A model generated the notes under the pieces. That model saw only the letters and a program-made list of their open reading frames with translations, had not been told where the DNA came from and made no database searches. The translations under genes and the position numbers were made by a program. Source: Gloeomargarita lithophora Alchichica-D10 (GTDB lineage: Bacteria > Cyanobacteriota > Cyanobacteriia > Gloeomargaritales > Gloeomargaritaceae). Taken from it: 64,000 nt of DNA. Below, piece by piece: positions 32,828 to 63,694 of the stretch (positions are counted from its first letter, which is position 1; every line of letters begins with the position of its first letter). Where the stretch lies: the NCBI RefSeq assembly GCF_001870225.1, contig NZ_CP017675.1, forward strand, positions 1,173,756 through 1,237,755, read 5' to 3'.

Positions 32828-32829
32828 GG

Positions 32830-34113: not shown

Positions 34114-34260
34114 GTTAGCTGTCTCCCACATTGACTTATCTTCAATTATACAAAGGTTGCGGGCACCACTATCGCTTCGGTTACCCTAGATGTCTAAAGA
34201 TGTAAAAAAACGACCACCGCTTACACTGAATGGATAGAGAACAAAGTCATTAAATTTACT

Positions 34261-36893: not shown

Positions 36894-36955
36894 GGGTATC
36901 AATCACCTAGAAGCCAATCACTAGGGTATCAAAGTTTGACTGGTTTTGTTTTTGT

Positions 36956-39900
36956 TTAACGACTGGCCTGATTGGTTTTGCAGGTGGGAAAATCACCGGT
37001 TTGCCATTGGATATTCGTGCTGGGCAGATTCTCTGTTCGTAAAACTAAGGGGTCAGTCAATGGGGTAGATGCTGAGTTTTGATTCACGGGTACATTGAGG
37101 CATAGTAAGGCTTCGGGGAATAGCACTGCTTCACCCATATCCGATAAATCCCGCCATTCTCGGTCATTAAAATTGAGGGTAAAGGTAACAGGTTCAGTAA
37201 ATGATGAACTGGGTAATCCGGGAATCAATTCCGCACCCACTTTATACAAGAAACCCTTGCCAATAAATAATGCCGGTTGAGGAAACGTGGTCTTAAATTG
37301 TTCCGAACCCCCCAACACAGGAAATCCGTTTACATTCCCCTGGGGACTGGTGGCATAGACTAAAAATGTACCGCCACTGGTTAAGGCAGTAGCACCTACA
37401 TTGTTGATAAAGTTATCATCTGCAACCAAAGTAATATCATTAGTTGCAGTAATACTCTTATTGACGACAATATCCCCAGTCAGAGCTTGTAGAAATACAC
37501 TATTAGCATCCTCAATGCCATCAGGATTTACCGTACCTACCGTGAGAGTTTTACTGTTCACAAAGCTAATGTCATTCGTAGTATCAGCGGCGATAGTAGT
37601 AATTGTATTACCAGAATTTTCTAATTCAAATTTACCACTGCCCAACAAAGCTAAACCATTGGCAATGATTTCATGAGATTGAGTTACGGTATCTCCCGCA
37701 GTCAAAGTGACATTGCCAGTGGTGTTAATACCATTGGTTTTATTAACTATCCCAATTTCAAAACCACCCACATCGGTATATTTAATATTATTTGTCGTGT
37801 TTGTAGCCAGAGTAGCGATGTCATTACTTATATTATTGAGAGTATATGCCCCTGTTCCCAATAGTTCTAAACCATCAGCAAATAAACCACCCGTATTATT
37901 TTGCGTGACACTTCCGGGAGAGTTGATAATAATATCTTCGGTGGTATTAACGGTGACATCATTTAAGATGATGGCATTGTTAGTAGAAGTCAGCTTAATC
38001 GCTCCAGTAGTTTTATTACCGATGATATTGCCACCAGATGCTATGCGAATAGCATCAGCACCATTACTACCCGTACCTGTGTAGGTGATGTTGCCTGTAG
38101 TGGTGGAGACTTGCGCTCCATTTGCTTGGCCTATGCCTGTGTTATTGGTTCCTGTCCCCTGCCCTATACCCGTAAGGTCGACTTTGCCGGTGCCAGTAGT
38201 GCTGATTTTGGTCGTGTTACCTGTTATTCCAATGCCGCTGTTACCACTTATCCCATTTCCGCCGGTCCCCGTGTAGGATATGTCGCCGTTGACACTGGTT
38301 ACTTGGGCACCATCTCCTTGCAGAATGCCAACATTACTATTATTTCCGTCTGCCCCCTTGCCCGTGTAGGTGATCTGCCCATCCACACTACTCACCTTAA
38401 CTGGATTGTCTAGGAAAATTCCGAAATTACCACCTGATGTCCCCTGCCCTGTGCCCGTGAGACTGATGGCTCCCGTGCCTTGAGTGCTGATGGTTGTGGT
38501 GGCGGTGGTGCCATCTTGCAGAAAAATTCCATGGTTTCTAGTTATTCCATTACCACCCGTGCCCTTGTAGGTGATACTGCCAGATTCAGTGCTGACTTGC
38601 GCCCCACTGAATTGATAAATGCCGTAATTATCCTTGCCCATTCCATTGCCACCTTGACCCGTCAGATTTACTGTTCCTGTCCCTGTGGTGCTAATGAGGG
38701 TGTTTGTGCCCTCAAGAAAAACACCGTAGTTGTTACTTTCTCCATCTCCGCCAGTGCCCTTGTAGGTGATATTGCCAGATTTAGTGCTGACTTTCGCCCC
38801 ACTGAATTGATAAATGCCGTAGTTCTTCGACTCGGTGCCGTTGCCCCCCTTCCCGGTAATACTGATCGCCCCTGAGTCAGAAGTGATTGTAGTATTTGCA
38901 CTTGTAAGAAAAACCCCGTAGTTGTTATTTGTTCCATTGCCACCCGTGCCTGTGTAGGTGATATTCCCTGATTCCGTAATGACTTCAGCACCTAAGTTTT
39001 GGAAAATGCCATAGTTATTAGCTCCTGTATTAAACCCTTTCCCTGTGAGGGTGATATTGCCCGCTCCGGCGGCGAGGGTTGCTCCATTCAATTCAACGCC
39101 ACTGGTTAGAGTGCTGGTACCTATAGCGGGATTATTCAGGGGGTCAATTCCACCACCTAAGATGATGTTGCCGTTGTTGCTGGTAATAGTGGTATTAGTC
39201 AGTTCAATCGCTCCGCCGTTGGTGCTATCTCTATCAGAGTTGAGAACAATATCTTTGCCCTGAGTAGTGATGTTGCTGTTGGTGCCAATGATATTTTCAT
39301 TAGCCCGTAGGGTGACTGTACCATTTATAGAAGAAATTTTACTGTCTGTGAACTTGAAACGATCGCCCGCCGAAACAGTAGTATTGTTGTCTGCACTGAT
39401 GATACTAAAAGTCATACCGGGGTTACCACTACTCAGGGTGATATTTTTCCCAGCCGTTATAGACTGGCTAGTGCCCGTTGAATTAATGGTGACATTGGCA
39501 TTTGTTCCTGAACCAGAGGTGAGTATAATATCCCGATTTGCGGTAATGGTTTGCAAACCATTTGAAGTGATGGTAACATTTCGACTTTGGGCGTTCGTGC
39601 CAGAGCCACCGAGCAATTTAATATCTTGCCCAGCCTTAACGGTCATGCCGCCTGTACCCGCAGTGACACTAACAAATGTATTGTCTATATTTGATTGCAG
39701 AACAATATCTTGCCCAGCCTCAAAATTAACAGTTGTAGCATTGATACGAGTAAATGCACCCCCAGTCCCAGTACCACCCAATTGAATTGTGCCATTAGTG
39801 GCTTTCAGTTCTACTAAATTTAGACTTCCCTCAATGCGATAATTACTAAACCCCGATGGATTCAAAATTATATTTTGACCTGCGATGAAACTAACATTAC

Positions 39901-41686
39901 CTGTTCCCACACCAACGATTGTGTTAGCAGTAGGAGTTGCTGTGATATTATTGGTGGCTTCAATGGTTACATTACCAGTATTAGTTGTGATGGTTCGATT
40001 GGGATTAACATTAAATCCCTTCGCTATGACTGAACCGCCGGTTATGCTACCACCAACAGTACTGAGATTGCCGTTGATAACGATAGAACCACTCGCATCA
40101 GGAATGGCCGCACCACTAAATGTTCCTGCTAACAGTTCAATATCACCCCCACGAGTCGTGATATTAGCATTGACAGCAATGTTTCGCCCCGCTTGAGCTT
40201 TGATGCCGATATTATTATTTGCCATCAAAACCGCACTGCTAAAGGTAATATCACGGGTGGCTTGCAAGACCACATTAGTCGTAGCATTTGCTAGAGTGGT
40301 GTCATTCAAAATGCTATTGCCAGAGCCGTTATCGGCAAAGAAAACATTGGGAGCATTGGGAACTCCAGAATTAGCGGCAGTACTAATGGTTAAATCCTGG
40401 GGATCGAGGAGTAAAGTTCCAGTTTTACCATTGACCGCTAGGGTATTAACTGTACCTTGAAAATCTAAATAATCCCGCCCTGATACTTCGACAAATCCCC
40501 CATCCCCAGATATTTCCCCACCTTTGGCGTTGATTTCCCCATAAAATCCCGTCGCTTTATCTGCCCAGACAATCACTTCACCGCCATTACCTGTATTAAC
40601 CGCTGAAGCGTTGATTTCCGCCCCTTGACCCACATAGGTCATCTGAGCATTGGGCAACGTCCCTTTACCTTGAAAACTGCCACCGATATTAACAATCCCA
40701 CCGCCTTTGTTTCCCGAAGCATCAATGAGCGCATTCCCGTTTAAGGCTATTTTCTCACCCGTAATTTCAACCTTACCGCCCCGTTCTCCCGATACATTTA
40801 ATTCCCCATTCACCGCCACAATACCCTGGGAACCACCGGATAAAACAATCACGCCATTGCGATTTTCGGCGTACTTCGCTTCGATAATGCCAGAAGTGTT
40901 AATCACACTATCCACAATCTGACCAGCCGCTTGAGCCGTTAAGGTAACAATGCCTCCCGGTGCCGTGATATTGCCTTGATTATCAATTAAAGAATTTAGC
41001 TTATTCCCATAAATATCTGTGATTTGCCCTGCCAAATTGGGGTCAACCGTGACACTTAATAACCCATCCCCATAAAAGTCTAAGCTAACGGTCGTTCCCG
41101 AAGCTAAAACTACCTTCCCCAAGCGAGCCGAAATTACGCCACTATTTTGCACCGCCGGAGCGACTAAAGCCGCAAAACCCGCTTCTTTCACCGTAATCAA
41201 ACCCTGATTCACTACCGATGCCGGGGCTTTTCCTGGCATTTGCTCAAAGCGTAAAACACCCCGCATAAAATCACTATCTTGAATATTTAATGTACTCGCC
41301 ACCAACCCCGCCACATCCACCCGTGCGGTGGGTAAAAACATGATCCCATTCGGGTTAATCAAAAAGATTTGCCCATTCGCCGTAAGTTTCCCGGCGATAC
41401 TCGAAGGCGTATTCCCTGTGACTCGATTTAAGGTGGCCGATGTACTGCTGGGTTGTTGAAAATTCACCCACTCCGGCGCACCAATGCTAAACCCATTCCA
41501 GTTGATAACCGCTCTGTCCGTGGATTGGTTGATGTTAAGTTTCGTGGCACTTTCCTGCTGAATGGTAGCCTGCCCCTGGGTGACCACACCGCCCTGGGGT
41601 AGGGCAAAACTGGGCAAGGAATACATTAACAATGCCAGCCATATCTGACTCGATAACCGCCGCCCCCATTGGAAATAAAATGACAT
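36956..41686 (-). CDS. Filamentous haemagglutinin-like secreted protein (TpsA type), copy 1
   Basis: The 1576-residue protein has a signal peptide ending in SLPSFA and then the TPS/haemagglutination-activity domain: LPQGGVVTQGQATIQ, KLNINQSTDRAVINWNGFSI, and FLINPNGIMF with the NPNGI motif. Such domains steer export through a TpsB outer-membrane channel. The passenger is a long beta-helix of Gly, Thr and Asn-rich repeats. Its middle part (about 900-1250) repeats units such as NYGIYQFSGAxVSTxSGxI with ITYKGTGG. A C-terminal module of about 120 residues (LVYATSPQ, FPQPALFIG, TLNFNDREWRDL, then two Cys) is shared with the protein at 57230-63694. No TpsB gene is in the window. ATG 41686 was chosen over a TTG 30 bases upstream. 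Confidence 0.88.
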   Translation of the reverse strand: MSFYFQWGRRLSSQIWLALLMYSLPSFALPQGGVVTQGQATIQQESATKLNINQSTDRAVINWNGFSIGAPEWVNFQQPSSTSATLNRVTGNTPSSIAGKLTANGQIFLINPNGIMFLPTARVDVAGLVASTLNIQDSDFMRGVLRFEQMPGKAPASVVNQGLITVKEAGFAALVAPAVQNSGVISARLGKVVLASGTTVSLDFYGDGLLSVTVDPNLAGQITDIYGNKLNSLIDNQGNITAPGGIVTLTAQAAGQIVDSVINTSGIIEAKYAENRNGVIVLSGGSQGIVAVNGELNVSGERGGKVEITGEKIALNGNALIDASGNKGGGIVNIGGSFQGKGTLPNAQMTYVGQGAEINASAVNTGNGGEVIVWADKATGFYGEINAKGGEISGDGGFVEVSGRDYLDFQGTVNTLAVNGKTGTLLLDPQDLTISTAANSGVPNAPNVFFADNGSGNSILNDTTLANATTNVVLQATRDITFSSAVLMANNNIGIKAQAGRNIAVNANITTRGGDIELLAGTFSGAAIPDASGSIVINGNLSTVGGSITGGSVIAKGFNVNPNRTITTNTGNVTIEATNNITATPTANTIVGVGTGNVSFIAGQNIILNPSGFSNYRIEGSLNLVELKATNGTIQLGGTGTGGAFTRINATTVNFEAGQDIVLQSNIDNTFVSVTAGTGGMTVKAGQDIKLLGGSGTNAQSRNVTITSNGLQTITANRDIILTSGSGTNANVTINSTGTSQSITAGKNITLSSGNPGMTFSIISADNNTTVSAGDRFKFTDSKISSINGTVTLRANENIIGTNSNITTQGKDIVLNSDRDSTNGGAIELTNTTITSNNGNIILGGGIDPLNNPAIGTSTLTSGVELNGATLAAGAGNITLTGKGFNTGANNYGIFQNLGAEVITESGNITYTGTGGNGTNNNYGVFLTSANTTITSDSGAISITGKGGNGTESKNYGIYQFSGAKVSTKSGNITYKGTGGDGESNNYGVFLEGTNTLISTTGTGTVNLTGQGGNGMGKDNYGIYQFSGAQVSTESGSITYKGTGGNGITRNHGIFLQDGTTATTTISTQGTGAISLTGTGQGTSGGNFGIFLDNPVKVSSVDGQITYTGKGADGNNSNVGILQGDGAQVTSVNGDISYTGTGGNGISGNSGIGITGNTTKISTTGTGKVDLTGIGQGTGTNNTGIGQANGAQVSTTTGNITYTGTGSNGADAIRIASGGNIIGNKTTGAIKLTSTNNAIILNDVTVNTTEDIIINSPGSVTQNNTGGLFADGLELLGTGAYTLNNISNDIATLATNTTNNIKYTDVGGFEIGIVNKTNGINTTGNVTLTAGDTVTQSHEIIANGLALLGSGKFELENSGNTITTIAADTTNDISFVNSKTLTVGTVNPDGIEDANSVFLQALTGDIVVNKSITATNDITLVADDNFINNVGATALTSGGTFLVYATSPQGNVNGFPVLGGSEQFKTTFPQPALFIGKGFLYKVGAELIPGLPSSSFTEPVTFTLNFNDREWRDLSDMGEAVLFPEALLCLNVPVNQNSASTPLTDPLVLRTENLPSTNIQWQTGDFPTCKTNQASR

Positions 41687-41773
41687 TTTTAGCTTGTACT
41701 TAGAAATTGAACTCAATTACTTTAGCACCCTATCGCCAACTATAAGGTATTAGCATTCCCAAAAATCACCCAA

Positions 41774-42865: not shown

Positions 42866-43012
42866 GGCCTGCTCCTGTGGGGGTGTCCGGGGCGAATCAT
42901 AAAAAAAATTCCTTAACCTACCCCAGGGTGTACTCCCCTATGATAAGCAAGGAATCTTGACTATTGCAAACTGAAATAGTGGGGTCAGCCCCTAGCTCCC
43001 GTCTGGTCGGTG

Positions 43013-44239
43013 TTACGCCTTGATCAGGTCGAAGATTTTGAACATGGGCAAATACATGGCCACCAGGATCGAACCCACCATGCCCCCCAACACCGCAATC
43101 ATCATGGGTTCCATGACGCTGGTGAGGGTTTTGACAGCGGCTTCCACCTCGGATTCGTAGAAATCCGCCACCTTGGTAATCATGGCATCCAATTCCCCGG
43201 TTTCTTCGCCAATACTGATCATTTGAATTGCCATATTGGGAAACACATTGGCCTTTTGCAACGCCAGGGAAATCAAGCCCCCGGCCTGAATATCCTCCCG
43301 TGCCCCGTCAATGGCATTGGCGATGATCTGATTTCCCGCCGTGTCCCGCACAATCTCCAAGGAGGTCAACACCGGCACCCCGGAGCGGGACAGGGAACCA
43401 AAGGTACGACTAAAGCGCGCCACCGCATTTTTGCGGATCAAATCCCCAAAAATCGGCACATTCAACGCAATCCGGTCAATGATTTCCCGCCCGGCGCGGG
43501 TAGCGTAGGCCGTTGTATAGCCAAAAATTGAGGCCGCCACCACCGCGGCCATGATTGCCAGGTTGACCGGGTTACGCATCCATTTGCTCAAATCCACCAT
43601 GAACTGGGTAAAGGCGGGCAATGTCCCCCCCAAACTCTCAAAAATCCCCCCAAAAATGGGAATCAAAAACAACACCATCCCCAAAAATACCCCCACCGCC
43701 AGCAGGGTCACCGCAATCGGGTAGGCCATCGCCGATTTAATCTGCTGCTCTAGTTTGGCCGCATCCTCCAGCAGTTTCGCCAAGCGGTTTAACACCTCAT
43801 CCAAGACCCCGCCCACTTCCCCGGACTGGATCATCGCCACATACAGATCGTCAAACACCTCCCGGTGTTGGCGCATGGATTCGGACAAGGTACTGCCCTG
43901 TTGCACATCGGCACTGACGGCGGCCAGGGCTTTTTTCATCTTGGGATTGGTCTGTTGATCCACCAAAATCCCCAACCCCCGCACCATCGGCACCCCCGCA
44001 TTCACCAGGGAGGCAAATTGGCGGGAAAATACGGCTTTATCCTTGACCGTGACACTGCTCAAAAAAGAAATGTCCAGGTCGGTTTCCATGATATTGAAGG
44101 GTTTGGCTTCCTTGATCTCCAGCACAAACATCCCTTCTTCCCGGAGCAGACTCCGGGCATCTTTGATCGTTTCCGCCTTTACCCGGCGTTCCTTGGAACG
44201 GCCTTGGGCATCACGGGCACGGGCTAGGTAGGTCGGCAT
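43013..44239 (-). CDS. pilC: Type IV pilus inner-membrane platform protein
   Basis: PilC anchors the pilus motor in the inner membrane. At 408 residues it shows two T2SSF domains: VFSRQFASLVNAGVPMVRGL with QSGEVGGVLDEVLNRLA, and ARFSRTFGSLSRSGVPVLTS with SIGEETGELDAMITKVADFY. Membrane helices lie near 170-195, 215-240 and 375-400. ATG 44239 starts MPTYLARARDAQGRS, typical of cyanobacterial PilC. It follows pilT by 58 bp; the order pilB-pilT-pilC on one strand is a conserved cyanobacterial cluster for assembly and retraction, used in motility and DNA uptake. Confidence 0.95.
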   Translation of the reverse strand: MPTYLARARDAQGRSKERRVKAETIKDARSLLREEGMFVLEIKEAKPFNIMETDLDISFLSSVTVKDKAVFSRQFASLVNAGVPMVRGLGILVDQQTNPKMKKALAAVSADVQQGSTLSESMRQHREVFDDLYVAMIQSGEVGGVLDEVLNRLAKLLEDAAKLEQQIKSAMAYPIAVTLLAVGVFLGMVLFLIPIFGGIFESLGGTLPAFTQFMVDLSKWMRNPVNLAIMAAVVAASIFGYTTAYATRAGREIIDRIALNVPIFGDLIRKNAVARFSRTFGSLSRSGVPVLTSLEIVRDTAGNQIIANAIDGAREDIQAGGLISLALQKANVFPNMAIQMISIGEETGELDAMITKVADFYESEVEAAVKTLTSVMEPMMIAVLGGMVGSILVAMYLPMFKIFDLIKA

Positions 44240-44297
44240 GGGCGTTTACCTCCAAACAAGGGTTTTAAGCGTAAGGGTCAAACGTGGAGGAGCGAAC

Positions 44298-45404
44298 CTA
44301 ATGGGCAGACTTGGCTCCGGCGGGAGCGGTGCTGCCACCAATCAAACGCTGGAGTTCGTCCGGTTTTGAGGTTTTGGAAATGGCATCCTCGTAGGTGCAA
44401 TCCCCCTTCTTGTACAGGTCGGCCAGCACCTTCTCCAGGGTCTGCATCCCATACTTCCCACCGGTCTGAATCGCTGAATAAATCTGGGGGGTTTTCCCCT
44501 CCCGGATCAGGTTGGCAATAGCGGGGGTGACCACCATGATTTCCTGCGCCATGATCCGGCCAAATTGCCCTGGTTTGGGATTTTTGCGCTTCACCAAGGT
44601 CTGGCTAAACACCGCCACCAACGAACTGGACAACTGCACCCGAATCTGTTGCTGTTGCTCCGGCGGGAACACATCCACCATCCGATCCACCGTCTGGGAA
44701 GCGGAACTGGTGTGCAAAGTACCAAAGACCAAGTGCCCGGTTTCTGCCGCCGTCACCGCCAACTGAATGGTTTCCAAATCCCGCATTTCCCCCACCAGGA
44801 TCACGTCCGGGTCTTCCCGCAGGGCGGCTCGCAGGGCGTTGGCAAAACTGCGGGTATCCTCGTTCAACTGCCGCTGATGAATAATGCTCTTTTGCGCCTC
44901 ATAGACAAATTCAATCGGGTCTTCCACCGTGAGGATATGCTCCGGGCGGGTGCGGTTGATGTTGTCAATCATGGCCGCCAGGGTGGTGGATTTCCCGGAA
45001 CCCGTTGGCCCCGTCACCAGCACCAACCCCCGGGGTTTTTCGGACATTTCCCGTACCACCGGGGGCAAATTCAAGGAATCAAAGCTGGGAATTTTGGAAG
45101 GTAACGCCCGCAAACAGGCGGCAATCGTCCCCCGGTCTTTGTACACGTTCACCCGGAAGCGAGCCAGCCCTTTGATCCCATAGGAACAGTCCAACTCCCA
45201 ACCCTGCTCAAAAATTTTGCGCTGGTTGTTATTCAAAATGCTGAAAATTAAACGTTGGCATTGCTCCGGCGACATGGGTTCATGTTCCGTAGCAGTGAGC
45301 TTGCCGCTGATGCGAATGTAAGGGGGTAGCCCCGCCGACAGGTGCAAGTCCGACCCGCCCCGCTGGACAACCTCCTCCATCAAATCTTCCATCATCAATT
45401 CCAT
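44298..45404 (-). CDS. pilT: Type IV pilus retraction ATPase
   Basis: PilT is the hexameric ATPase that depolymerises the pilus. From ATG 45404 it has 368 residues: RGGSDLHLSAGLPPYIRISG at the start, Walker A GPTGSGKSTT, the Asp box and Walker B (DPDVILVGEMRDLETIQLA), and the His box (GHLVFGTLHTSSASQTVDR). Near the C terminus AQEIMVVTPAIANLIREGK corresponds to the AIRNLIRE-type retraction motif. AAAGGAGG lies six bases upstream of ATG 45404, favouring it over in-frame ATG 45410 and TTG 45425. Confidence 0.96.
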   Translation of the reverse strand: MELMMEDLMEEVVQRGGSDLHLSAGLPPYIRISGKLTATEHEPMSPEQCQRLIFSILNNNQRKIFEQGWELDCSYGIKGLARFRVNVYKDRGTIAACLRALPSKIPSFDSLNLPPVVREMSEKPRGLVLVTGPTGSGKSTTLAAMIDNINRTRPEHILTVEDPIEFVYEAQKSIIHQRQLNEDTRSFANALRAALREDPDVILVGEMRDLETIQLAVTAAETGHLVFGTLHTSSASQTVDRMVDVFPPEQQQQIRVQLSSSLVAVFSQTLVKRKNPKPGQFGRIMAQEIMVVTPAIANLIREGKTPQIYSAIQTGGKYGMQTLEKVLADLYKKGDCTYEDAISKTSKPDELQRLIGGSTAPAGAKSAH

Positions 45405-45437
45405 CGGCATCCTCCTTTGGGGCAATCTAAAACGAAT

Positions 45438-47444
45438 TTACTCACTAAAGCGGGGGGTGAGACAGTAGGGACATTCCATCCACTCCGGCTTCAGGCTGGC
45501 ATGGCAACTCCGGCAAATCAACCCCTGTTTCCGCTTGGCCTTCAGTTCGGACTCCAACCCGGTATCGGTGAAGGTCACCCGCTCGACCTCTTCGAGGGTG
45601 GTCAAGCCCTGGCGCACCAGTTCCAAACTGTAGGAGAGCAGGGTTTTCATCCCTTCTTCAACGGCGATTTCCTTGATCACTTCCGTGGGCGCATTTTCGG
45701 TGATCAGGGCTTGCAGACGCTCGGTGACCCGCATCACTTCGTACACCCCGCACCGCCCTTTGTACCCGCCCCCATTGCACTTGCCGCAGATGGGTTGTCC
45801 CTGGGCTTTGGCCTGCCGGATTTGGTCGGAATTTAAGCTATTCGCCCGGTAATAGGTCAGCCCGTGGCCGGAACCGGTGAGGCCAAAGCGAGCCAGTTCT
45901 TCCTCCCCCGGACTGTAGGGAATGCGGCACTCGCTACACACCCGCCGCATCAGCCTTTGCGCCAGCACCCCAATCAAAGAAGCCGACACCATGTGGGACT
46001 CGACTTCCATTTCCGATAACCGCGCCACCGCACTGGGGGCATCGTTGGTGTGCAGGGTGGTCAAGACCAGGTGTCCGGTCAAGGCCGCTTCAATCGCCGT
46101 TTTCGCCGTTTCCTTGTCCCGGGTTTCCCCCACCAGGATCACGTCCGGGTCTTGGCGCAAAAACGCCCGCAAAATGGCGGCAAAATTCATCCCCTTCTCC
46201 CGAATCACCTGCACCTGGGTCAAACCGGGCAAGGTGTATTCAATCGGGTCTTCGGCGGTGCTGATATTCACGCCGGGGTCGTTGCGCTCGGATAAACAGG
46301 AATACAACGTCGTGGTTTTCCCGGAACCGGTCGGCCCGGTCACCAGGATCAACCCAAAGGGCTTTTTCACCATCTCCCGGACGGTATTTAAGGTATCTGC
46401 ATCGGTAATGAGTTTATCTAAGCCCAACTGGGTCGAAGAATTATCCAAAATCCGCATACAGATTTTTTCCCCGTACCGCATGGGCAGGGTATTCACCCGG
46501 AAATCAATTTTGCGCCCCTGAAATATCTTGCGAATCCGGCCATCCTGGGGTTGCCGCCGCTCGGCAATATCCAAATTCGCCAAAATCTTGAACCGGGAAG
46601 TCACCGCCGGGATCACCTGCTTGGGTAAATTTTCCCACCCCTGGCGCAGTACCCCGTCTTTGCGAAAACGAATCCGCAAAAACTCCTCCTGGGGTTCCAC
46701 ATGAATGTCCGATACCCCTTCACTCAAGGCTTTCGCCAGGATGTTATTGGTCAGAGAAATAATGGGGGCTTCCTCAGAACCCTTCAAAACGTCGATTAAA
46801 TCCATCTCCGCTTCGTCCTGGGCTTCCTCCAGTTGCTCGTACTGGGACAGGTCAATATCCGTAGCAATATGCGCTTCCTGACTGGCACCCGCCAGCTTGG
46901 AGGCTTGTAACTCGTTGGCATACTGGTTAATCAGATGCAAAAAATCTTCCTGGGCAATCACCCGGCGCCGCAACCGCAACCCCTTGGCACGGGTAATGCG
47001 ATTTAATTCATCCAACGCTTGCAAATTGTCCGGGTTGACCATCGCCACGGTCAAGCTGGGATTGTCCCCCTCCTGGCGTGCCACCGGCAGAAAATTGTGG
47101 CGGCGGCAAGTATCCAGGTTGATCAAAACATCCACCAATTCTTTCATTTGGGGAAAAGAAATCGGGTTCAGTTCCGGGTCAAGGGACTCGACCCCAAACA
47201 GGACTTTCAGTTCAAAAAGCTGTTGCCGCTTGTACTGGCGCACCAATTCGGCGGGTAGGGCTTTACCCGTGAGTTCTTGCAAGACATCCGGGAGCGGGCG
47301 ACCCTCTTCCCGACTTTTTTGCAGTGCCTTGGTGATCTGATCCCGGTCGGCGACACCGGCTTTGATAATGTCCTTGACAATAGGGCTTGCCCCGGCTTGC
47401 CGGGTAACCAACGCCCGGCGGGCATTGATGGGAGAGTTAACCAT
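45438..47444 (-). CDS. pilB: Type IV pilus assembly ATPase
   Basis: PilB drives pilus extension. The protein of 668 residues has an MshEN-type N domain (about 15-200), then SDIHVEPQEEFLRIRFRKDG, Walker A GPTGSGKTTTL, EDPIEYTLPGLTQVQV, Walker B DPDVILVGETRDKETAKTA and GHLVLTTLHTNDAPSAVARL. A tetracysteine zinc site (CSEC ... CGKC) is typical of assembly ATPases. A further C-terminal pair of CxxC motifs (CRSC and CPYC) forms a second likely zinc ribbon, as in other cyanobacterial PilB. I take ATG 47444 (MVNSPINARRALV); an upstream ATG at 47537 would add 31 atypical residues. Confidence 0.95.
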   Translation of the reverse strand: MVNSPINARRALVTRQAGASPIVKDIIKAGVADRDQITKALQKSREEGRPLPDVLQELTGKALPAELVRQYKRQQLFELKVLFGVESLDPELNPISFPQMKELVDVLINLDTCRRHNFLPVARQEGDNPSLTVAMVNPDNLQALDELNRITRAKGLRLRRRVIAQEDFLHLINQYANELQASKLAGASQEAHIATDIDLSQYEQLEEAQDEAEMDLIDVLKGSEEAPIISLTNNILAKALSEGVSDIHVEPQEEFLRIRFRKDGVLRQGWENLPKQVIPAVTSRFKILANLDIAERRQPQDGRIRKIFQGRKIDFRVNTLPMRYGEKICMRILDNSSTQLGLDKLITDADTLNTVREMVKKPFGLILVTGPTGSGKTTTLYSCLSERNDPGVNISTAEDPIEYTLPGLTQVQVIREKGMNFAAILRAFLRQDPDVILVGETRDKETAKTAIEAALTGHLVLTTLHTNDAPSAVARLSEMEVESHMVSASLIGVLAQRLMRRVCSECRIPYSPGEEELARFGLTGSGHGLTYYRANSLNSDQIRQAKAQGQPICGKCNGGGYKGRCGVYEVMRVTERLQALITENAPTEVIKEIAVEEGMKTLLSYSLELVRQGLTTLEEVERVTFTDTGLESELKAKRKQGLICRSCHASLKPEWMECPYCLTPRFSE

Positions 47445-47706
47445 AGGGATGGATGCTGGTAAGCTGTGGGGTAAAATTAAACCTAATGATAATCCTAGCT
47501 TACACGCTCCACCCCAATTCCCCAAGGGTTTCACCAAGTTTTCTGCCCCTGTGTGGTTGGGGGTGATATTTGGGTATATTTAGGGTGCTGAAATCCCAGA
47601 AAAAAAAAACTTGGGGACATCCGCAACTGACCGCCGTGCCGTGGTAACGGGCGGGCTAAGTGATAATTTAGAGGGAGCAGTTACATTTTCTTAATGGTTT
47701 AGTCCC

Positions 47707-48510
47707 ATGATAAACACCGGTGCCCATCCCGAGGATCTGATTCCCGATCCCTTTGCTGAAGAAACCGCCGCCCCAGAGACGGTGGCACCTCCGAGTGCAT
47801 CCCCGGCAATCGAGCCGGAAACAGCCATTCCCGCCCCGGCGGATGCCCCTGAAAATGCCCCCACCCTAGTGGATATGGAACTCCCGGCCACCTTTGGGGA
47901 ATTGGCGATGCCGGAAGAACCCAACCCAGCGGCGATAGTGGCCTTGCAGGAAGAACTGTTGCAGGAGCGGGAGCGTTGCGAAACCCTCAGGGCAGAGCAA
48001 CAGGCACTGGAGCAAAAATTAGCCCAGGCGGAACAGCAAAGCGAAGACCAGCGGGGGCAAATCGTGCGTTTGGCCGCCGATTTTGAAAATTACCGTCGGC
48101 GGGTACAGCGGGAGCAGGAGGAGGCCAGCCTCAAGGCCAAGGCCAAGGTATTGGAGGAACTGCTGGCCGTGGTGGACAATTTTGAGCGTGCCCGCACCCA
48201 TATCCGTCCCGAAACCGAAGAGGGCATGGCGATCCACAAAAATTACCAGGGGGTCTATAAGCAGATGGTTGAGGAGTTAAAAAAACTGGGGGTAGCCCCC
48301 ATTCCCGGTAAGGGACAGCCCTTTGACCCCAACCGGCACGAGGCGGTACTCCAGGAAGCCAGCCGTGAATACGCCGAAGGAGTAGTGATCGAAGAACTGC
48401 GGCGGGGCTATTTTCTCAAGGTGGGGGAGGAAGACCGGGTACTGCGTCACGCCCTGGTGAAGGTATCCACCGGAGCCGCAGATGCCCCCGAACTGGAAAC
48501 CACCGACTAG
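47707..48510 (+). CDS. grpE: Nucleotide exchange factor GrpE
   Basis: GrpE releases ADP from DnaK. The 267-residue protein has an acidic, Pro/Ala-rich disordered N terminus (about 1-75), a coiled coil (about 78-125), then the GrpE core: RLAADFENYRRRVQREQEEA, LLAVVDNFERARTHI and FDPNRHEAVLQEAS, ending with RVLRHALVKVS. The long N-terminal tail makes it larger than typical GrpE (about 190-240 residues). dnaK follows after 165 bp. No CIRCE element is seen upstream; a TGATAAT-like -10 box lies at about 47660. Confidence 0.95.
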   Translation: MINTGAHPEDLIPDPFAEETAAPETVAPPSASPAIEPETAIPAPADAPENAPTLVDMELPATFGELAMPEEPNPAAIVALQEELLQERERCETLRAEQQALEQKLAQAEQQSEDQRGQIVRLAADFENYRRRVQREQEEASLKAKAKVLEELLAVVDNFERARTHIRPETEEGMAIHKNYQGVYKQMVEELKKLGVAPIPGKGQPFDPNRHEAVLQEASREYAEGVVIEELRRGYFLKVGEEDRVLRHALVKVSTGAADAPELETTD

Positions 48511-48675
48511 GCGAGTCCCCCGGATTCGGGGTATGATAAATCTTAAAATGCAGGTTTACGTTTTACGCTCCCAAACTTTTTTTAGACAGGTGATCGTCAT
48601 CACTGACTTTTTGGGAACCCTACACACAGCGTTGTTCCGCTCATCCTTTTTTTATGAATTGCTTAGGTAGGTGCT

Positions 48676-50550
48676 ATGGCCAAAATCGTCGGGATTGATT
48701 TAGGCACAACCAATAGTTGCGTGGCGGTGCTGGAGGGCGGTCAGGCCACGGTGATTACCAACTCGGAGGGGGGGCGGACGACTCCGAGTGTGGTCGGGTT
48801 TGGCAAGTCGGGGGAACGGTTGGTGGGGCAACCGGCGAAACGGCGGGCGGTCACGGATGCGGAAAATACCATTTTTAGTATCAAGCGGTTTATTGGTCGG
48901 CGCTGGTCGGAGACGGAGGAGGAGCGCCAGCGGGTGCCCTACAAATGTGTGCCGGGCAAAGACAGCACGGTGAATGTGGAAATCCGCAATCAGAGCCACA
49001 CCCCGCAGGAAATTTCCGCCATTATTTTGCAAAAGCTCAAGCAGGATGCGGAGAATTTTTTGGGGGAACCGGTGACCCAGGTGGTGATCACGGTACCCGC
49101 CTATTTTAGCGATGCCCAACGGCAGGCCACCAAGGATGCGGGCACGATTGCCGGGTTGGAGGTTCTGCGGATTGTGAATGAACCGACGGCGGCGGCCTTG
49201 GCCTTTGGGTTGGACAAGCAAGACCAGGAGCAAACCGTGTTGGTGTTTGACCTGGGCGGGGGCACCTTTGATGTGTCCATTTTGCGGATGGGGGATGGGA
49301 TTTTTGAGGTGGTTTCCACCGCCGGGAACAACCACCTGGGGGGGGATGACCTGGATGCCTGTTTGGTGGATTGGATTCTGGGGGAATTTCAGTCCCGGGA
49401 AACCTTAGACTTGCGGGAAGATAAAATGGCTCTGCAACGGGTGCGGGAGGCCGCCGAGAAGGCCAAGATTGAACTTTCCAGTGCCAAGAGTACGGCGATC
49501 AATTTACCGTTTATTGCCTCCGATGCCACGGGAGCCAAGCATATTGATGTGGAGTTGACCCGGGCGAAATTTGAGGATTTGACTCGCCATTTGGTGCAGG
49601 GGACGTTGGAGCCGGTGGCGCAGGCATTGCGGGATGCGGGGATGAAACCGCGGGATATTGACCGGATTTTGCTGGTGGGGGGTTCGACCCGGATACCGGC
49701 GGTACAAAAGGCGATCCAGGATTATTTTGAGGGCAAGGCACCGGAAAAATCCGTGAACCCGGACGAGGCGGTGGCGATTGGGGCGGCGGTGCAGGCGGGG
49801 ATTGTGGGCAAAAATGAGGTGGTCAAAGACCTGCTATTGCTGGATGTCACGCCTTTGTCCATGGGCATTGAGACCCTGGGGGGGATTTTCAGCCGGATTA
49901 TCGAGCGGAACACCACCATCCCCACCAGCCAATCCCAGACCTTTTCCACGGCTACGGACAACCAAACCGTGGTGGAAGTCCACGTTCTCCAGGGGGAGCG
50001 ACCGATGGCCGCCGACAACAAGAGTTTGGGGCGGTTGGAACTCACGGGCATTCCCCCGGCGCCCCGGGGCGTACCCCAGGTTGAGGTCACCTTTGAGATT
50101 GATGCCAACGGCATTTTGCAGGTGACGGCCATGGACAAGGGAACCGGGCGCAGTCAGTCCGTGCGCCTGACCAACACCGGCGGCTTGAGTGGGGAAGAAA
50201 TCAAGCGTCTGACCCTCGAAGCGACTTTTAACGCCGAGGTGGACGGGCAGAGACGGGAGTTTATCGAATTAAAAAATCAAGCCGATGCCCTGCTGACGAT
50301 GTATGAAGGCACTCTGCGGGAGCATGGGCAGTATGTGAACGATGGGGTTAAGTCCGAGGCGGCGGCACGGGTGGGGCGAATTCGCCGCCTGATGGGGGAT
50401 TCCATGACTCCCCTGGACAATTTCCGCCAGGAACTGAACCAATTGAACAGCAATCTCAGCCAAATGGGGGCGGAGATGTACCGACGCAGTACCAATCCCG
50501 GTGCGGTGACGGCGGGCAGTCCCGGCGGCGATTTTGAGCAGTTGGACTAA
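48676..50550 (+). CDS. dnaK: Hsp70 chaperone DnaK
   Basis: DnaK binds exposed hydrophobic peptides under ATP control. The 624-residue protein shows [59 protein letters not shown] and [14 protein letters not shown] in the ATPase domain, then the substrate domain ([20 protein letters not shown]). The C terminus is short and Asn/Gln-rich and lacks the EEVDD-like tail of E. coli DnaK, as in some cyanobacterial paralogs. It lies behind grpE; dnaJ is not adjacent. Cyanobacteria have several dnaK genes and I do not assign the paralog number. Confidence 0.95.
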
Positions 50551-56452: not shown

Positions 56453-56463
56453 TGTATAAACCC

Positions 56464-57229: not shown

Positions 57230-60200
57230 ATGTACAATGTTAATCAAGTTTATCGCCTTCTAGTCCTGCCCTTCAAGGTTTTGCTGTCGTTGGTCATCTA
57301 CCAACCCTTCACCCTGGCCTTACCCCAGGGCGGCGTGGTCACTCAGGGGCAGGCCGTGATTCAGCAGGAGAGTGCCACAAAACTTAATATCAACCAATCT
57401 ACGGATAGGGCGGTTATTAACTGGAATAGTTTTAGTATTGGGGCGCCGGAGTGGGTGAATTTTCAACAACCCAGTAGTACATCAGCGACGCTTAATCGGG
57501 TCACGGGGAATACGCCTTCCAGTATTGCAGGTAAGTTGACGGCCAATGGGCAAATCTTTTTGATTAACCCGAATGGGATCATGTTTTTACCCACCGCGCG
57601 GGTGGATGTGGCGGGGTTGGTGGCGAGTACGTTGAATATCAAAGATAGTGATTTCATGCGGGGTGTTTTACGCTTTGAACAAATGTCGGGTAAAGCACCT
57701 GCCAGTGTAGTCAATCAGGGGTTAATCACAGTAAAAGAAGCCGGTTTTGCGGCTTTAGTCGCTCCGGCGGTGCAAAATAGCGGCGTAATTTCGGCTCGCT
57801 TGGGGAAGGTAGTTTTAGCTTCAGGGACAACGGTGAGTTTAGATTTTTATGGGGATGGGTTGCTGAGTGTAACAGTTGACCCCAAATTAGCGGGACAAAT
57901 CACGGATATTTATGGGAATAAGCTAAATTCTTTAATTGATAATCAAGGCAATATCACGGCACCGGGAGGCATTGTTACCTTAACGGCTCAAGCGGCTGGT
58001 CAGATTGTGGATAGTGTGATTAACACTTCTGGCATTATCGAAGCGAAGTACGCCGAAAATCGCAATGGCGTGATTGTTTTATCGGGGGGTTCCCAGGGTA
58101 TTGTGGCGGTGAATGGGGAATTAAATGTATCGGGAGAACGGGGCGGTAAGGTTGAAATTACAGGCGAAAATGTTGGCTTATTTGGTGCGGCGAAAATTGA
58201 TGCTTCTGGAGACAAAGCGGGCGGTCTAATTTTGATTGGTGGGGATTACTTAGGGGGCAGAGCCGATAAGCAGAGAATTGACCCCAGTTTGAATGCCCAA
58301 AATACGTTTGTGAGTAGTCAAAGCATTCTTACCGCCGATGCGAGAATTGCTGGTAATGGCGGGGAAGTTATCATTTGGGCGGACAATTTCACCCGTTTTG
58401 ATGGCACAATTACTGCTACTGGGGACAATGGCGGTTTTGTGGAAACTTCCGGCAAGAACATATTAGAAATTGGTGATAGTGCCAAGGTAGATACCACAGG
58501 CAAAATTGGTAGTACCGGAACGTGGTTACTCGATCCTTTGAATTTAAGTATTAGTGGCTCAGGTACGAATGCTAATGTCACCGGGGCAAGCCCTTTCACC
58601 CCTACAGGAACCGGGTCAATTTTACGAGATACCACGATTAACAATGCCCTACTCACCAATAATGTAGTCGTGAAAACCGTGGGTACGAGTGGGGCAGATC
58701 GAGGCGATATTATATTTAATAACAATGCCAACGTGAATTGGTCAACCAATAAAACCTTTACGGTTCAGGCCGCCGGACAGATTTTTATGAACGATGGCAC
58801 CAAGGTTCAAAGCACCAATACGGGCAGTTTTAATGCCATTACTTTTAAAGCTAATACTGCCGATGCGGTCACGGGTGATATGACTGGCATTGATTTGCAA
58901 CAGGGCAGTGAATTGAGTACCCAAGGGGGTAAAATTTCTCTCACTGGTATTGGGGGACAAACGGGGAATTCTAATTTCGGGATTTTGCATAAGGCAGTGG
59001 TTCAAAGCACCACCGGTAGTATTACTTATAAGGGCACTGGGGGCAAAGGAGTTAATAGTAATTATGGGGTTTATTTGCTGAATCCCATAGCAACAACTGG
59101 CGCAAAAATTGCCAGCACCACGGGAGTGATTAGTATTACCGGCACTGGACGGGGTACAGGTCAAGAAAACATAGGTATTGTCCAGGAATTAGGTGCCCAA
59201 GTCAGTAGTACATCGGGGGCAATTACCTACATTGGTAAGGGTGCAACTACTGGTACTGACTTCAATCGGGGGATTATACTTACTAACGAAAATACAACTA
59301 TTAGTACAACAACTGGAGCAATCACCCTCACAGGTACCGGTGGGGGCACTGGCCAGCAAAACCAGGGAATTTTTCAAACTGCCCAGGCGCAAGTCAGCAC
59401 CCAAGGCGGCAATATCACCTATACGGGAACTGGGTCTAATGGTTCTGGTACTAGCAATACGGGGATTGTTCTCGCTGATGACGGCACCAAAATTAGCACG
59501 ATCAACGCTGGAAAAATCACTTTAACGGGCACCGGTGGCACCAATGCTACTGCGTCTAAAAACCGAGGAATTTTTCAAGTGGCGGGTGCCCAGGTCAGTA
59601 CAGTCAATGGGGCGATTAGTTACACCGGCACCGGGGGCAATGCCACTAACAATAACTATGGGATTCATTTAGAGGGGGTTGATAGTTCTATTACCACAAC
59701 CGGCACAGGAACTATCACGCTTACGGGTAAAGGACAAGGCACGGGGACTGAAAACTACGGCATTTTGCAACGATCAGATGCCAAAGTCACAACCGCTAAT
59801 AGTATCATTACCTACAAAGGAACCGGTGCGGTTACAGCCGATGGGATTCGGACTGAATCGGGTACTAATATCATTGGGAATAATACCACCAAAAGTATCG
59901 TCTTAACTTCCTTGAAAAATGGCATTACCTTAAATGATGTCACGATTCAAACCAAAGAAAATATCATTATTACTTCCCCCGGCGATGTCACGCAAAATAA
60001 TAATGGCGGGCTATTAGCTATCACTGCAAATAAGGGTTTACAACTCAATGGAGCCGGTAATTATACACTTACTAATGTTAATAACGATATAGCTACCTTG
60101 GCCGCTAAAAATACCGGCAATATCAGCTTTCAAGATACGAATGGGTTTGTGGTCGGTACGGTAGGAACCATTACCGGGATTACAACCGCTACTACCAAAA

Positions 60201-63200
60201 ATATCACCCTAACATCTGGTGGGGAGGTAACCCAAACTCAGAAGATTGTTACTGGCGGGTTAGAACTCACAGGAACGGGAGGAACCTACACTTTAACCAA
60301 TACAGGTAATAACATTGTAACCCTAGCCGCAGACACTCAAAATAACCTCAGTTTTACGGATAGGAACGGTTTAATTATTGGCACAGTAGGGACAACCAAT
60401 GGCATCACAGCTACTAACAAAAATGTAACCTTAACCGTCAATGCTGGGACTCTCACTCAAACTAAGGCAATTACGGCCAGCGGCTTAGAATTAAAAGGCA
60501 ATGGCACTTTTACCCTAACTAATGCAAATAATGATGTCACCACATTAGCCGCCAATGTAGGTAACCCCCTCAGTTTCACTGACCAAAATACATTAACTAT
60601 TGGTACAGTTAATACTACTAATGGTATTACTACCAGCAACGATGCGGTTACGCTGAAAACTGGTGACTTATTAACAATTAACAAAGCCATTGCTGTAGGA
60701 AATCAGAAGGTCAGCATTGAAAGTGCTGGAGTTACTCAAGGAACCGATGGCAAAATTACCGGGAGTGGCTTGCGTTTGCTTGGTACAGGTACATTCAATT
60801 TGAATAATACGGCGAATAATATCGCTCTCCTGGCCGCTAATGTTACTGGTTCGCTTACTTATGTAGATGCTAACGTGATGGCAATTGATACCGTTCTCGG
60901 AACCACCGGAGTTAAAACCAATAATAATTCCATCAATATCAGCACGGTTAATGGTAATTTAACCCTGAGTAACTTAACAGGGAATAAAGTTGATGCAGGT
61001 ACGGGTACCGTAAATCTAACTGCGGGTGGTAATAGCATTTTTACCAATAATGCCAAAGCGAGCGTGATTGGTTCAGGCGGAGTCACAATTACTGCTAATA
61101 GAATGACCTTGAATACTGGTAGCACAATTAACAGTGGTATAAATATCACAACCTTACAACCAAATACCGCAGGACGCTTAATCAACTTAGGTGGGGCAGA
61201 TGTGGCCGCAACGACTTTAGGACTAACTTCAGCAGAATTAAATACAGTCACCGCTGGAACATTACGGGTGGGGAAAAATGATGCTGGTAATATCACTGTT
61301 TCCGCCGCCATCGCTCCTGCTGGTACAAATACTTTAACTTTAATCACCAATGGCACCGTCACGCAAAATGCTGGTGCAACTATCACCGAAACTAATTTAG
61401 CCATCAAAGCGGGTGGTAATATCACCCTCAATCAAAATAATCAAATTACTAATTTTGCCGCCAGCACCACTGGTAATGTTACGTTGAATGACTTAGGTGG
61501 GTTAAATGTTGATACGATTGATGGCGTGAATGGTTTAGTCACAACACCCGTTAATGTTGATTTGAAGACTACGGGAAATATCACCCAATCTGCTGGTGCT
61601 GATATTATTACCTCTGGGTTGACCACCCTTGATGCAGGCACAGGGAATATCACGCTCAATAATACTTCTAATAACTTCACGAACTTAAAAATTGCGAATT
61701 CTAATAATGCAGTATTTACTAACTTAATTGGGTTGAACATCCAGGGCATTAATACAACGGGTGATGTCACAATCAATCCTGGTGGTGCAGTGACCCAAAC
61801 TGGAGCGATTATTGCTAATACCTTAAATTTGCAAAGTCCGGGATTTGGCTATACTTTGGATAATGCTAGTAATAATATTGTCACCCTGAATAGTAATAAT
61901 ACGGGAACAATAACCTACACTGATGTCAATGATTTTAGCGTAGGAAACTTAACCACTAATAATGCCAATGTCACCCTCAATGCTCCCAACGTTAATGCCA
62001 TTACTTTCACGGGGAATGTGAATGTTAGCACCGGCAATTTAGCAGTTACCAGTGGCACTATCAATCAAACTGGCGGTAGTATCATAGTTAATGGTACTGC
62101 TAACTTCACGAGTACCAAAGCAAATACTGGTAATGTTATTGCCAAAAATACTACAGCTACTCAATTAGGTAATTCTGTAATTGGTGGTGATTTCACCCTT
62201 ACTTCCACCGGTAATGTTACCCAATCAGGTTCATTGAAAGTTGCTGGTATAACGACTATTACCGCTCCCAATGGTCTGAGCGATTTAACTGATCCAGGTA
62301 ATTTATTGCCGAGTGTTTTCTCGCCAGCTACAGGTGATTTAACTGTTACCGGGATAGGGACAGTAGATTTACCCACCAAAAGCATCACAGGTGATTTAAC
62401 AGTAACATCCAATGCAACAGGTAGTGGATTCGCTAGTATTTTCAGCGATTCTGCGATTCAGTTAAATCAAAATAATAATTTTACTGGCACGGTTAGTTTT
62501 AATACGCAAACTGCCGCTATAGGCTCCTTATCCGGTACGCCTGCAATTACTCAATCCGGCGTGCAAACAGTGGGTGGTACAAGTACATTTAATGCAGTGA
62601 ATGGGACGATTGATCTAAATCTGAATAACCAACTTACAGGCGCAGTTACCTTAAATACAGGTGTGGGTGGTGGGAATATCACATTCAAAAACGATCAAGC
62701 TATTGTGATTACTGGTGCAACAACTGCGGCGAATTTGAATATAGTTACTAATGGTAATCTCACTCAAATTGGCACAATTACCGCAGGAGGAATTAGCACA
62801 TTCAATGCGGGAACAAATGATATTACCTTGAATTTAGGCAATGACTTTAACACGTTAGAATTGATTGGAAATAATGCTAAAATTACTGATACCAATGGAT
62901 TTGTGATAACTGGAGCAAATATCACTAATATACTCAGTTTAACCGCCGGTGATACGGTTACTCAATCTGGGGCAATTAATGCTAATGGGCTGGCTTTATT
63001 GGGCAGTGGTAAATTTACACTCAATAATCCTGGTAATACAATTACTACTATCGCTGCTGATACAAAAAATGATATTAGTTTTGTAAATAGTAAAACTCTT
63101 ACAGTAGGTACAGTCAATCCCACCGGAATTACCACCACGGGTACAGTATTGTTACAAGCACTTCAGGGAGATATTATTCTCGACAACTCTGTGACTTCTA

Positions 63201-63694
63201 CGGCTACAAAAAATGCAATTACCCTAGTGGCGGATGATGATTTTATCAATAATGCAGGTAAAGCGGCTTTATCAGCAGTGAATGGCCGTTGGCTAGTTTA
63301 TGCCACCAGTCCCCAAGACAATAAAAATGGTGGCTTGACCGGGGCAGAACAGTTCAATACCCCGTTTCCACAACCTGCCTTATTTATTGGTAATGGCTTC
63401 CTATACAGAGATAAGGCACCTTTTGTTCCTGGATTGCCGAATGAATTGAATGAACCGATAACCTTTACCCTCAATTTTAATGACCGAGAATGGCGAGACT
63501 TGACCGAATTTTCTGAGCAATCGGCATTGGTCGAATCACTCGTTTGTACCAGCGATACGGCTTTAGCTAATGCTTCCGATGCAACCCTGATAATTCTTGA
63601 CCGATCCATCAATCCTTTGGCATTCACCCAGCGGGTATTTTTCGCCAATGATGGTTTGCCCTCATGTGATGCGGGCAATCAAGCCTCTAACTAA
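57230..63694 (+). CDS. Filamentous haemagglutinin-like secreted protein (TpsA type), copy 2
   Basis: The 2154-residue product has a signal peptide ending in FTLA, and a TPS domain (residues about 31-330) almost identical in protein sequence to the copy at 36956-41686, including FLINPNGIMF. The passenger differs: residues 450-1000 hold repeats such as VSTQGGNITYTGTGSNGSGT, residues 1000-1350 hold repeats around LELTGTGGTYTLTNTGNNIV followed by TLAA, and later parts continue with Asn/Thr/Gly-rich beta-helix text. The C-terminal module (LVYATSPQ; FPQPALFIGNGFLYR; TLNFNDREWRDL; Cys in LVCTSD and PSCDAG) is shared with copy 1. It is likely a surface or secreted adhesin; no TpsB is in the window. 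Confidence 0.88.
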   Translation: MYNVNQVYRLLVLPFKVLLSLVIYQPFTLALPQGGVVTQGQAVIQQESATKLNINQSTDRAVINWNSFSIGAPEWVNFQQPSSTSATLNRVTGNTPSSIAGKLTANGQIFLINPNGIMFLPTARVDVAGLVASTLNIKDSDFMRGVLRFEQMSGKAPASVVNQGLITVKEAGFAALVAPAVQNSGVISARLGKVVLASGTTVSLDFYGDGLLSVTVDPKLAGQITDIYGNKLNSLIDNQGNITAPGGIVTLTAQAAGQIVDSVINTSGIIEAKYAENRNGVIVLSGGSQGIVAVNGELNVSGERGGKVEITGENVGLFGAAKIDASGDKAGGLILIGGDYLGGRADKQRIDPSLNAQNTFVSSQSILTADARIAGNGGEVIIWADNFTRFDGTITATGDNGGFVETSGKNILEIGDSAKVDTTGKIGSTGTWLLDPLNLSISGSGTNANVTGASPFTPTGTGSILRDTTINNALLTNNVVVKTVGTSGADRGDIIFNNNANVNWSTNKTFTVQAAGQIFMNDGTKVQSTNTGSFNAITFKANTADAVTGDMTGIDLQQGSELSTQGGKISLTGIGGQTGNSNFGILHKAVVQSTTGSITYKGTGGKGVNSNYGVYLLNPIATTGAKIASTTGVISITGTGRGTGQENIGIVQELGAQVSSTSGAITYIGKGATTGTDFNRGIILTNENTTISTTTGAITLTGTGGGTGQQNQGIFQTAQAQVSTQGGNITYTGTGSNGSGTSNTGIVLADDGTKISTINAGKITLTGTGGTNATASKNRGIFQVAGAQVSTVNGAISYTGTGGNATNNNYGIHLEGVDSSITTTGTGTITLTGKGQGTGTENYGILQRSDAKVTTANSIITYKGTGAVTADGIRTESGTNIIGNNTTKSIVLTSLKNGITLNDVTIQTKENIIITSPGDVTQNNNGGLLAITANKGLQLNGAGNYTLTNVNNDIATLAAKNTGNISFQDTNGFVVGTVGTITGITTATTKNITLTSGGEVTQTQKIVTGGLELTGTGGTYTLTNTGNNIVTLAADTQNNLSFTDRNGLIIGTVGTTNGITATNKNVTLTVNAGTLTQTKAITASGLELKGNGTFTLTNANNDVTTLAANVGNPLSFTDQNTLTIGTVNTTNGITTSNDAVTLKTGDLLTINKAIAVGNQKVSIESAGVTQGTDGKITGSGLRLLGTGTFNLNNTANNIALLAANVTGSLTYVDANVMAIDTVLGTTGVKTNNNSINISTVNGNLTLSNLTGNKVDAGTGTVNLTAGGNSIFTNNAKASVIGSGGVTITANRMTLNTGSTINSGINITTLQPNTAGRLINLGGADVAATTLGLTSAELNTVTAGTLRVGKNDAGNITVSAAIAPAGTNTLTLITNGTVTQNAGATITETNLAIKAGGNITLNQNNQITNFAASTTGNVTLNDLGGLNVDTIDGVNGLVTTPVNVDLKTTGNITQSAGADIITSGLTTLDAGTGNITLNNTSNNFTNLKIANSNNAVFTNLIGLNIQGINTTGDVTINPGGAVTQTGAIIANTLNLQSPGFGYTLDNASNNIVTLNSNNTGTITYTDVNDFSVGNLTTNNANVTLNAPNVNAITFTGNVNVSTGNLAVTSGTINQTGGSIIVNGTANFTSTKANTGNVIAKNTTATQLGNSVIGGDFTLTSTGNVTQSGSLKVAGITTITAPNGLSDLTDPGNLLPSVFSPATGDLTVTGIGTVDLPTKSITGDLTVTSNATGSGFASIFSDSAIQLNQNNNFTGTVSFNTQTAAIGSLSGTPAITQSGVQTVGGTSTFNAVNGTIDLNLNNQLTGAVTLNTGVGGGNITFKNDQAIVITGATTAANLNIVTNGNLTQIGTITAGGISTFNAGTNDITLNLGNDFNTLELIGNNAKITDTNGFVITGANITNILSLTAGDTVTQSGAINANGLALLGSGKFTLNNPGNTITTIAADTKNDISFVNSKTLTVGTVNPTGITTTGTVLLQALQGDIILDNSVTSTATKNAITLVADDDFINNAGKAALSAVNGRWLVYATSPQDNKNGGLTGAEQFNTPFPQPALFIGNGFLYRDKAPFVPGLPNELNEPITFTLNFNDREWRDLTEFSEQSALVESLVCTSDTALANASDATLIILDRSINPLAFTQRVFFANDGLPSCDAGNQASN

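What the first reader, a model, noticed from the sequence alone, without database searches (positions are those of the whole stretch)
40761..41017. Gene-conversion tract between the two haemagglutinin-like genes
Bases 40761-41017 (minus strand) and 57905-58161 (plus strand) are identical at 255 of 257 positions by my reading. The DNA on the 5' side of the TPS domain differs at many synonymous positions although the proteins are nearly the same. This mosaic is the mark of recent recombination between paralogs 17 kb apart in inverted orientation, which could also invert the intervening psbA, pil and dnaK region.
Basis: seen in the sequence. Interest (0 to 1): 0.65.

Follow-up and report, generated by a model that had tools for sequence, protein, structure and literature searches.

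The report
Patchwork gene conversion among three adhesin genes
Three related genes for large secreted surface proteins in a Gloeomargarita cyanobacterium have copied stretches of their shared secretion-signal region from one another, an ordinary recombination process that has not fixed an inversion of the DNA between two of them.

Summary
None of 100,000 shuffles of the 81 A/B differences gave so clean a 257-base stretch. Synonymous divergence falls from mostly 0.25-0.75 per site to 0.00, then rises to 0.65-0.95 after the tract.

A second near-identical tract joins A and C (41551-41352). The three TPS domains are a mosaic with at least two separate recent conversions. In the sister genome VI4D9, which also has three copies, orthologs pair up by passenger region, whereas TPS domains mostly resemble their genome-mates (concerted evolution).

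Inversion is not supported. In two congeners without this gene, the A-side flank and the pil-dnaK block are collinear with the window. Gene B also keeps its orthologous signal peptide and passenger on both sides of the tract. The exchange was therefore most likely non-crossover.

Similar processes are published for Haemophilus hmw and Neisseria tpsA. This is a solid new example of a known kind, of modest interest.

The parts
36956..41716 (-). Gene A: TPS-domain exoprotein (TpsA-like, filamentous-haemagglutinin type), 1586-aa frame; ATG probably at 41686
   Evidence: ORF list; Pfam TPS PF05860, E = 1.1e-35; translation
57230..63694 (+). Gene B: TPS-domain exoprotein with DUF5649 repeats, 2154 aa
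   Evidence: ORF list; Pfam TPS E = 6.9e-36 and DUF5649
40751..41605 (-). A copy of the roughly 855-base inverted repeat (TPS-coding region)
   Evidence: blastn, 90.8% identity
57317..58170 (+). B copy of the roughly 855-base inverted repeat
   Evidence: blastn, 90.8% identity; 90% to paralog C elsewhere in the genome
40761..41017 (-). Gene-conversion tract shared with gene B (255/257 identical; 3' end of the TPS-coding region)
57905..58161 (+). Gene-conversion tract shared with gene A
41352..41551 (-). Second conversion tract, shared by gene A with paralog C (own genome 2304711-2305560, outside the window); 199 of 200 identical
   Evidence: exact runs of 134 and 65 bases; permutation p = 0.0002; (A,C) clade in the TPS1 tree
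43013..50550 (.). Block between the two genes (pilC/pilT/pilB-like, grpE, dnaK), collinear with the A-side flank in G003 and G001: no net inversion
   Evidence: Pfam T2SSF, T2SSE, GrpE, HSP70

Best explanation
Genes A, B and C encode large two-partner-secretion exoproteins that share one type of N-terminal TPS domain but have diverged passengers. Homologous recombination between the dispersed copies, probably RecA-dependent strand invasion resolved without crossover, repeatedly copies tracts of about 200-260 bases from one TPS-coding region to another. The best-preserved events are A/B at 40761-41017 and A/C at 41551-41352. The result is concerted evolution of the TPS-coding segment, while signal peptides and passengers keep their separate histories. 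Shown: the tracts, their significance, closer similarity of TPS domains within the genome than to orthologs, parental flanking markers in B and C, and absence of a net inversion. Inferred: the RecA route, the donor direction (A to B slightly favoured), and any selective benefit such as keeping TPS domains matched to a shared TpsB.
For: 255/257 identity with sharp edges. Synonymous divergence is 0.00 in three consecutive windows inside the tract, mostly 0.25-0.75 before it and 0.65-0.95 after it. Permutation tests give 0/100,000 and p = 0.0002 for A/B, and p = 0.0002 for A/C. Local trees change: (A,C) in TPS1, (A,B) in TPS3, and C with v1 and B with v2/v3 just after the TPS domain. Genome-mates are 90-94% identical over the TPS domain, against 79-83% for the likely ortholog pairs A-v3, B-v2 and C-v1. 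B's signal peptide and passenger both still match the same VI4D9 gene, v2, and C's match v1.
Against: The tracts were read from one assembly; mixing of reads between paralogs during consensus building could mimic a short tract, although two differences retained inside it argue mildly against this. The direction of transfer is not resolved: A and B differ from C by 17 and 19 sites in the tract, where the B-C rate elsewhere in the TPS domain would give about 29 and the A-C rate in the middle block about 19 (from counts). The orthology of A with v3 is less clear than B-v2 or C-v1.
Confidence: 0.94

Rival explanations
1. Reciprocal crossover between the inverted repeats, inverting the 41-58 kb segment and swapping the promoters and signal peptides of A and B, comparable to Haemophilus hmw1/hmw2.
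For: The two genes face each other 5' to 5' with an inverted repeat of about 855 bases and a 179-base identical run, enough for crossover in principle. An inversion between paralogous TPS loci is documented at hmw1/hmw2 (PMC10127715).
Against: In G003 and G001 the A-side flank and the pil-dnaK block are adjacent and collinear with the window, so there is no net inversion. B's signal peptide and passenger both still match v2.
Confidence: 0.05
2. Nucleotide-level purifying selection (RNA or regulatory element, codon constraint) keeps the 257 bases alike in A and B.
For: The protein is well conserved here.
Against: The same segment shows synonymous divergence of about 0.1-0.4 to paralog C and about 0.5-0.8 to the VI4D9 orthologs of A and B, so it is not generally constrained.
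Confidence: 0.02
3. Assembly or consensus artefact: reads of one paralog overwrote the other.
For: The tract is short and lies in a repeat; raw reads are not available here.
Against: Two internal differences are retained. A second tract with a different partner (C) exists, and weaker clustered sharing appears in VI4D9 as well, as expected for a continuing process.
Confidence: 0.04
4. A recent duplication of the TPS region, with the differences elsewhere arising later.
For: All three copies share the whole TPS domain at 90-94%.
Against: A simple duplication would give uniform synonymous divergence, which is not seen.
Confidence: 0.01

Closest known systems
Haemophilus influenzae HMW1/HMW2 adhesins (hmw1A, hmw2A)
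   Same: Paralogous TPS exoproteins at separate loci. Gene conversion swapping domains between the loci is stated in PMC8262952, and inversion between the two loci is documented in PMC10127715.
   Different: There the binding (passenger) domains are said to be swapped, and the loci carry their own translocator and glycosyltransferase genes. Here the TPS secretion domain is homogenised, the genes have no adjacent TpsB, and no inversion is seen.
Neisseria meningitidis tpsA / tpsC cassettes
   Same: Recombination and proposed gene conversion between TPS gene copies (PMC3848433).
   Different: There the 3' end is replaced from cassettes that lack the TPS domain. Here complete genes exchange the 5' TPS-coding region.
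Concerted evolution of psbA/psbD and other prokaryotic paralogs
   Same: Paralogs in one genome resemble each other more than their orthologs (PMC6053082).
   Different: There whole genes are described as evolving in concert; here only one domain does. The words hemagglutinin and adhesin do not occur in that paper.

Membership tests
Gene-conversion tract between paralogs | Significant cluster of identity against a more diverged background in the same gene pair | tested here: met
Gene-conversion tract between paralogs | Local phylogeny inside the tract differs from that of flanking segments | tested here: met
   Trees by block: (A,C) in TPS1, (A,B) in TPS3, orthologous grouping after the TPS domain
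Gene-conversion tract between paralogs | Flanking markers keep the parental arrangement (non-crossover) | tested here: met
   Gene B 5' end and passenger both match v2; flank and segment collinear in G003 and G001
Gene-conversion tract between paralogs | Donor and recipient identified | tested here: inconclusive
   Counts slightly favour A to B
Two-partner secretion TpsA exoproteins | N-terminal TPS domain (PF05860) after a signal peptide | tested here: met
   Pfam over cut-off in A and B; hydrophobic signal-like N-terminus ending ...ALPQGG in the translations, judged by eye
Two-partner secretion TpsA exoproteins | Cognate TpsB transporter | tested here: inconclusive
   Two ShlB-type and three POTRA_2-bearing genes in the genome, none adjacent to a TPS gene
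Invertible hmw-like locus | Segment found in both orientations | tested here: not met
   Same orientation relative to the A-side flank in G003 and G001; within-culture polymorphism not testable here

The most novel reading that the evidence does not exclude
The facing A and B genes act as a rare reversible inversion switch that swaps promoters and signal peptides between two adhesins, comparable to hmw1/hmw2 but in a free-living cyanobacterium; the identical tract would mark repeated recombination there, with an even number of inversions to date.
Probability: 0.05. Interest if true: 0.6.

Novelty: new member of a known kind. Interest (0 to 1): 0.3.

Why it matters
It is a clean, statistically strong case of domain-limited concerted evolution in a deep-branching cyanobacterium: the secretion domain is homogenised between genes whose passengers differ. 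It warns against using TPS domains to infer orthology in this genus. It also suggests, without proving, that several exoproteins without a neighbouring transporter gene are kept compatible with a few unlinked transporters.

Tried and rejected
Inversion was tested by collinearity in congeners and by flanking-marker linkage, and rejected as a net event. In VI4D9 the relevant blocks are scattered (mscS at 2.54 Mb, pil-dnaK at 0.86 Mb, TPS genes elsewhere), so that genome cannot decide the question; G003 and G001 can. Nucleotide-level constraint was rejected because the tract diverges normally in C and VI4D9. The HIP1 motif (GCGATCGC) as a recombination hotspot was rejected: 0 copies in the window. 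Other TPS genes of this genome as donors were rejected: they share only short DNA matches (42-139 bases) with A, B or C. A first three-way alignment used the wrong strand of L004 and was redone.

Full report
WHAT WAS CHECKED. They lie inside an inverted repeat of about 855 bases at 90.8% identity, the TPS-coding part of two open frames: gene A, 36956-41716 minus, and gene B, 57230-63694 plus. Both carry Pfam TPS domains.

CHANCE. Across the 852-base TPS alignment A and B differ at 81 sites. Shuffling those differences 100,000 times never gave a 257-base window with 2 or fewer. A GENECONV-style permutation of polymorphic sites (my own script, 5,000 shuffles) reached its floor, p = 0.0002, for A/B. 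Synonymous divergence per 84-column window ranges from 0.13 to 0.75 upstream (mostly above 0.25), is 0.00 in three consecutive windows in the tract, and is 0.65-0.95 just after it.

SOURCE. The window lies in a 3,049,282-base single-contig genome. The genus is therefore Gloeomargarita; that it is G. lithophora itself rests on my recollection of its genome size and was not tested.

A THIRD GENE. The own genome holds a third close paralog, C, at 2304711-2305560 minus, in a 1783-aa frame. The corrected three-way alignment shows that A and C are nearly identical where A and B differ (41551-41352: exact runs of 134 and 65 bases; p = 0.0002), while A and B are identical at the other end. These are two separate events with different partners, plus weaker B/C sharing in between (p about 0.04).

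COMPARISON WITH A SISTER SPECIES. VI4D9 has three relatives, v1 (83787), v2 (112110) and v3 (421213). Passenger and post-TPS similarity pairs C with v1 and B with v2, and A most with v3 (A-v3 is the least certain). Over the TPS domain, A, B and C are 90-94% identical to each other but only 79-83% to those orthologs, and v2 is closest to v3 (85.2%) rather than to B (80.8%). Trees by block change accordingly. This is concerted evolution confined to the TPS-coding region.

CROSSOVER OR NOT. A crossover between A and B would invert the segment between them and swap their 5' ends. Two tests speak against a net event. First, in G003 the left flank of A (window 32192-36759) and the pil-grpE-dnaK block (43019-50471) lie 239 bases apart and collinear; G001 shows the same order with some genes missing. 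Gene A and the neighbouring transporter fragment are absent at that junction, so the window's orientation appears ancestral. Second, the signal peptide and the passenger of B both match the same VI4D9 gene, v2. The exchange was therefore most likely non-crossover. Polymorphism within a culture is untested.

MECHANISM. The most likely route is RecA-type homologous recombination between dispersed copies without crossover (inference from general knowledge). The 3' edge of the A/B tract coincides with the point where A and B become different alleles (GEKIALNG versus GENVGLFG), as expected if copying stops at heterology. Direction is unresolved; counts slightly favour A to B. The genome has two ShlB-type transporter genes and a third POTRA_2 gene, none beside any TPS gene. 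A shared transporter could favour matched TPS domains, but homology alone is enough to explain where conversion occurs.

KNOWN PRECEDENTS. Gene conversion swapping domains between hmw loci is stated in PMC8262952. Inversion between hmw1 and hmw2 is shown in PMC10127715. Recombination and proposed gene conversion in meningococcal tpsA is described in PMC3848433. Concerted evolution of psbA/psbD in cyanobacteria is in PMC6053082. A paper search for Gloeomargarita with hemagglutinin gave two papers, neither on these genes by title and abstract. The finding is a new member of a known kind.

Noticed in passing
41774-42865: RND (AcrB-type) transporter gene with an apparent in-frame internal deletion of about 2.07 kb: 363 aa here against a 1064-aa open frame at the same place in congener G004; the junction is at about 42718.
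   Followed up: partly
36902-43013: Gene A and the transporter fragment are absent in G003, where the mscS-side flank and the pil block lie 239 bases apart, so this is an insertion or loss site.
   Followed up: partly
55288-57048: Three tandem genes of about 195 aa, 81-89% identical in DNA, just upstream of gene B; the one tested is of the Uma2 family.
   Followed up: no
L007 and L008 (own genome 15362-15997 and 388828-389482): Another pair of TPS-domain loci, 92-95% identical to each other; one has an in-frame TGA and the other a broken frame, so probably degraded copies.
   Followed up: no
G003 and G006 (congeners): Both near-complete genomes (98-99%) lack any TPS-domain match, while other members of the genus have 2 to 9 matches: patchy distribution.
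   Followed up: no
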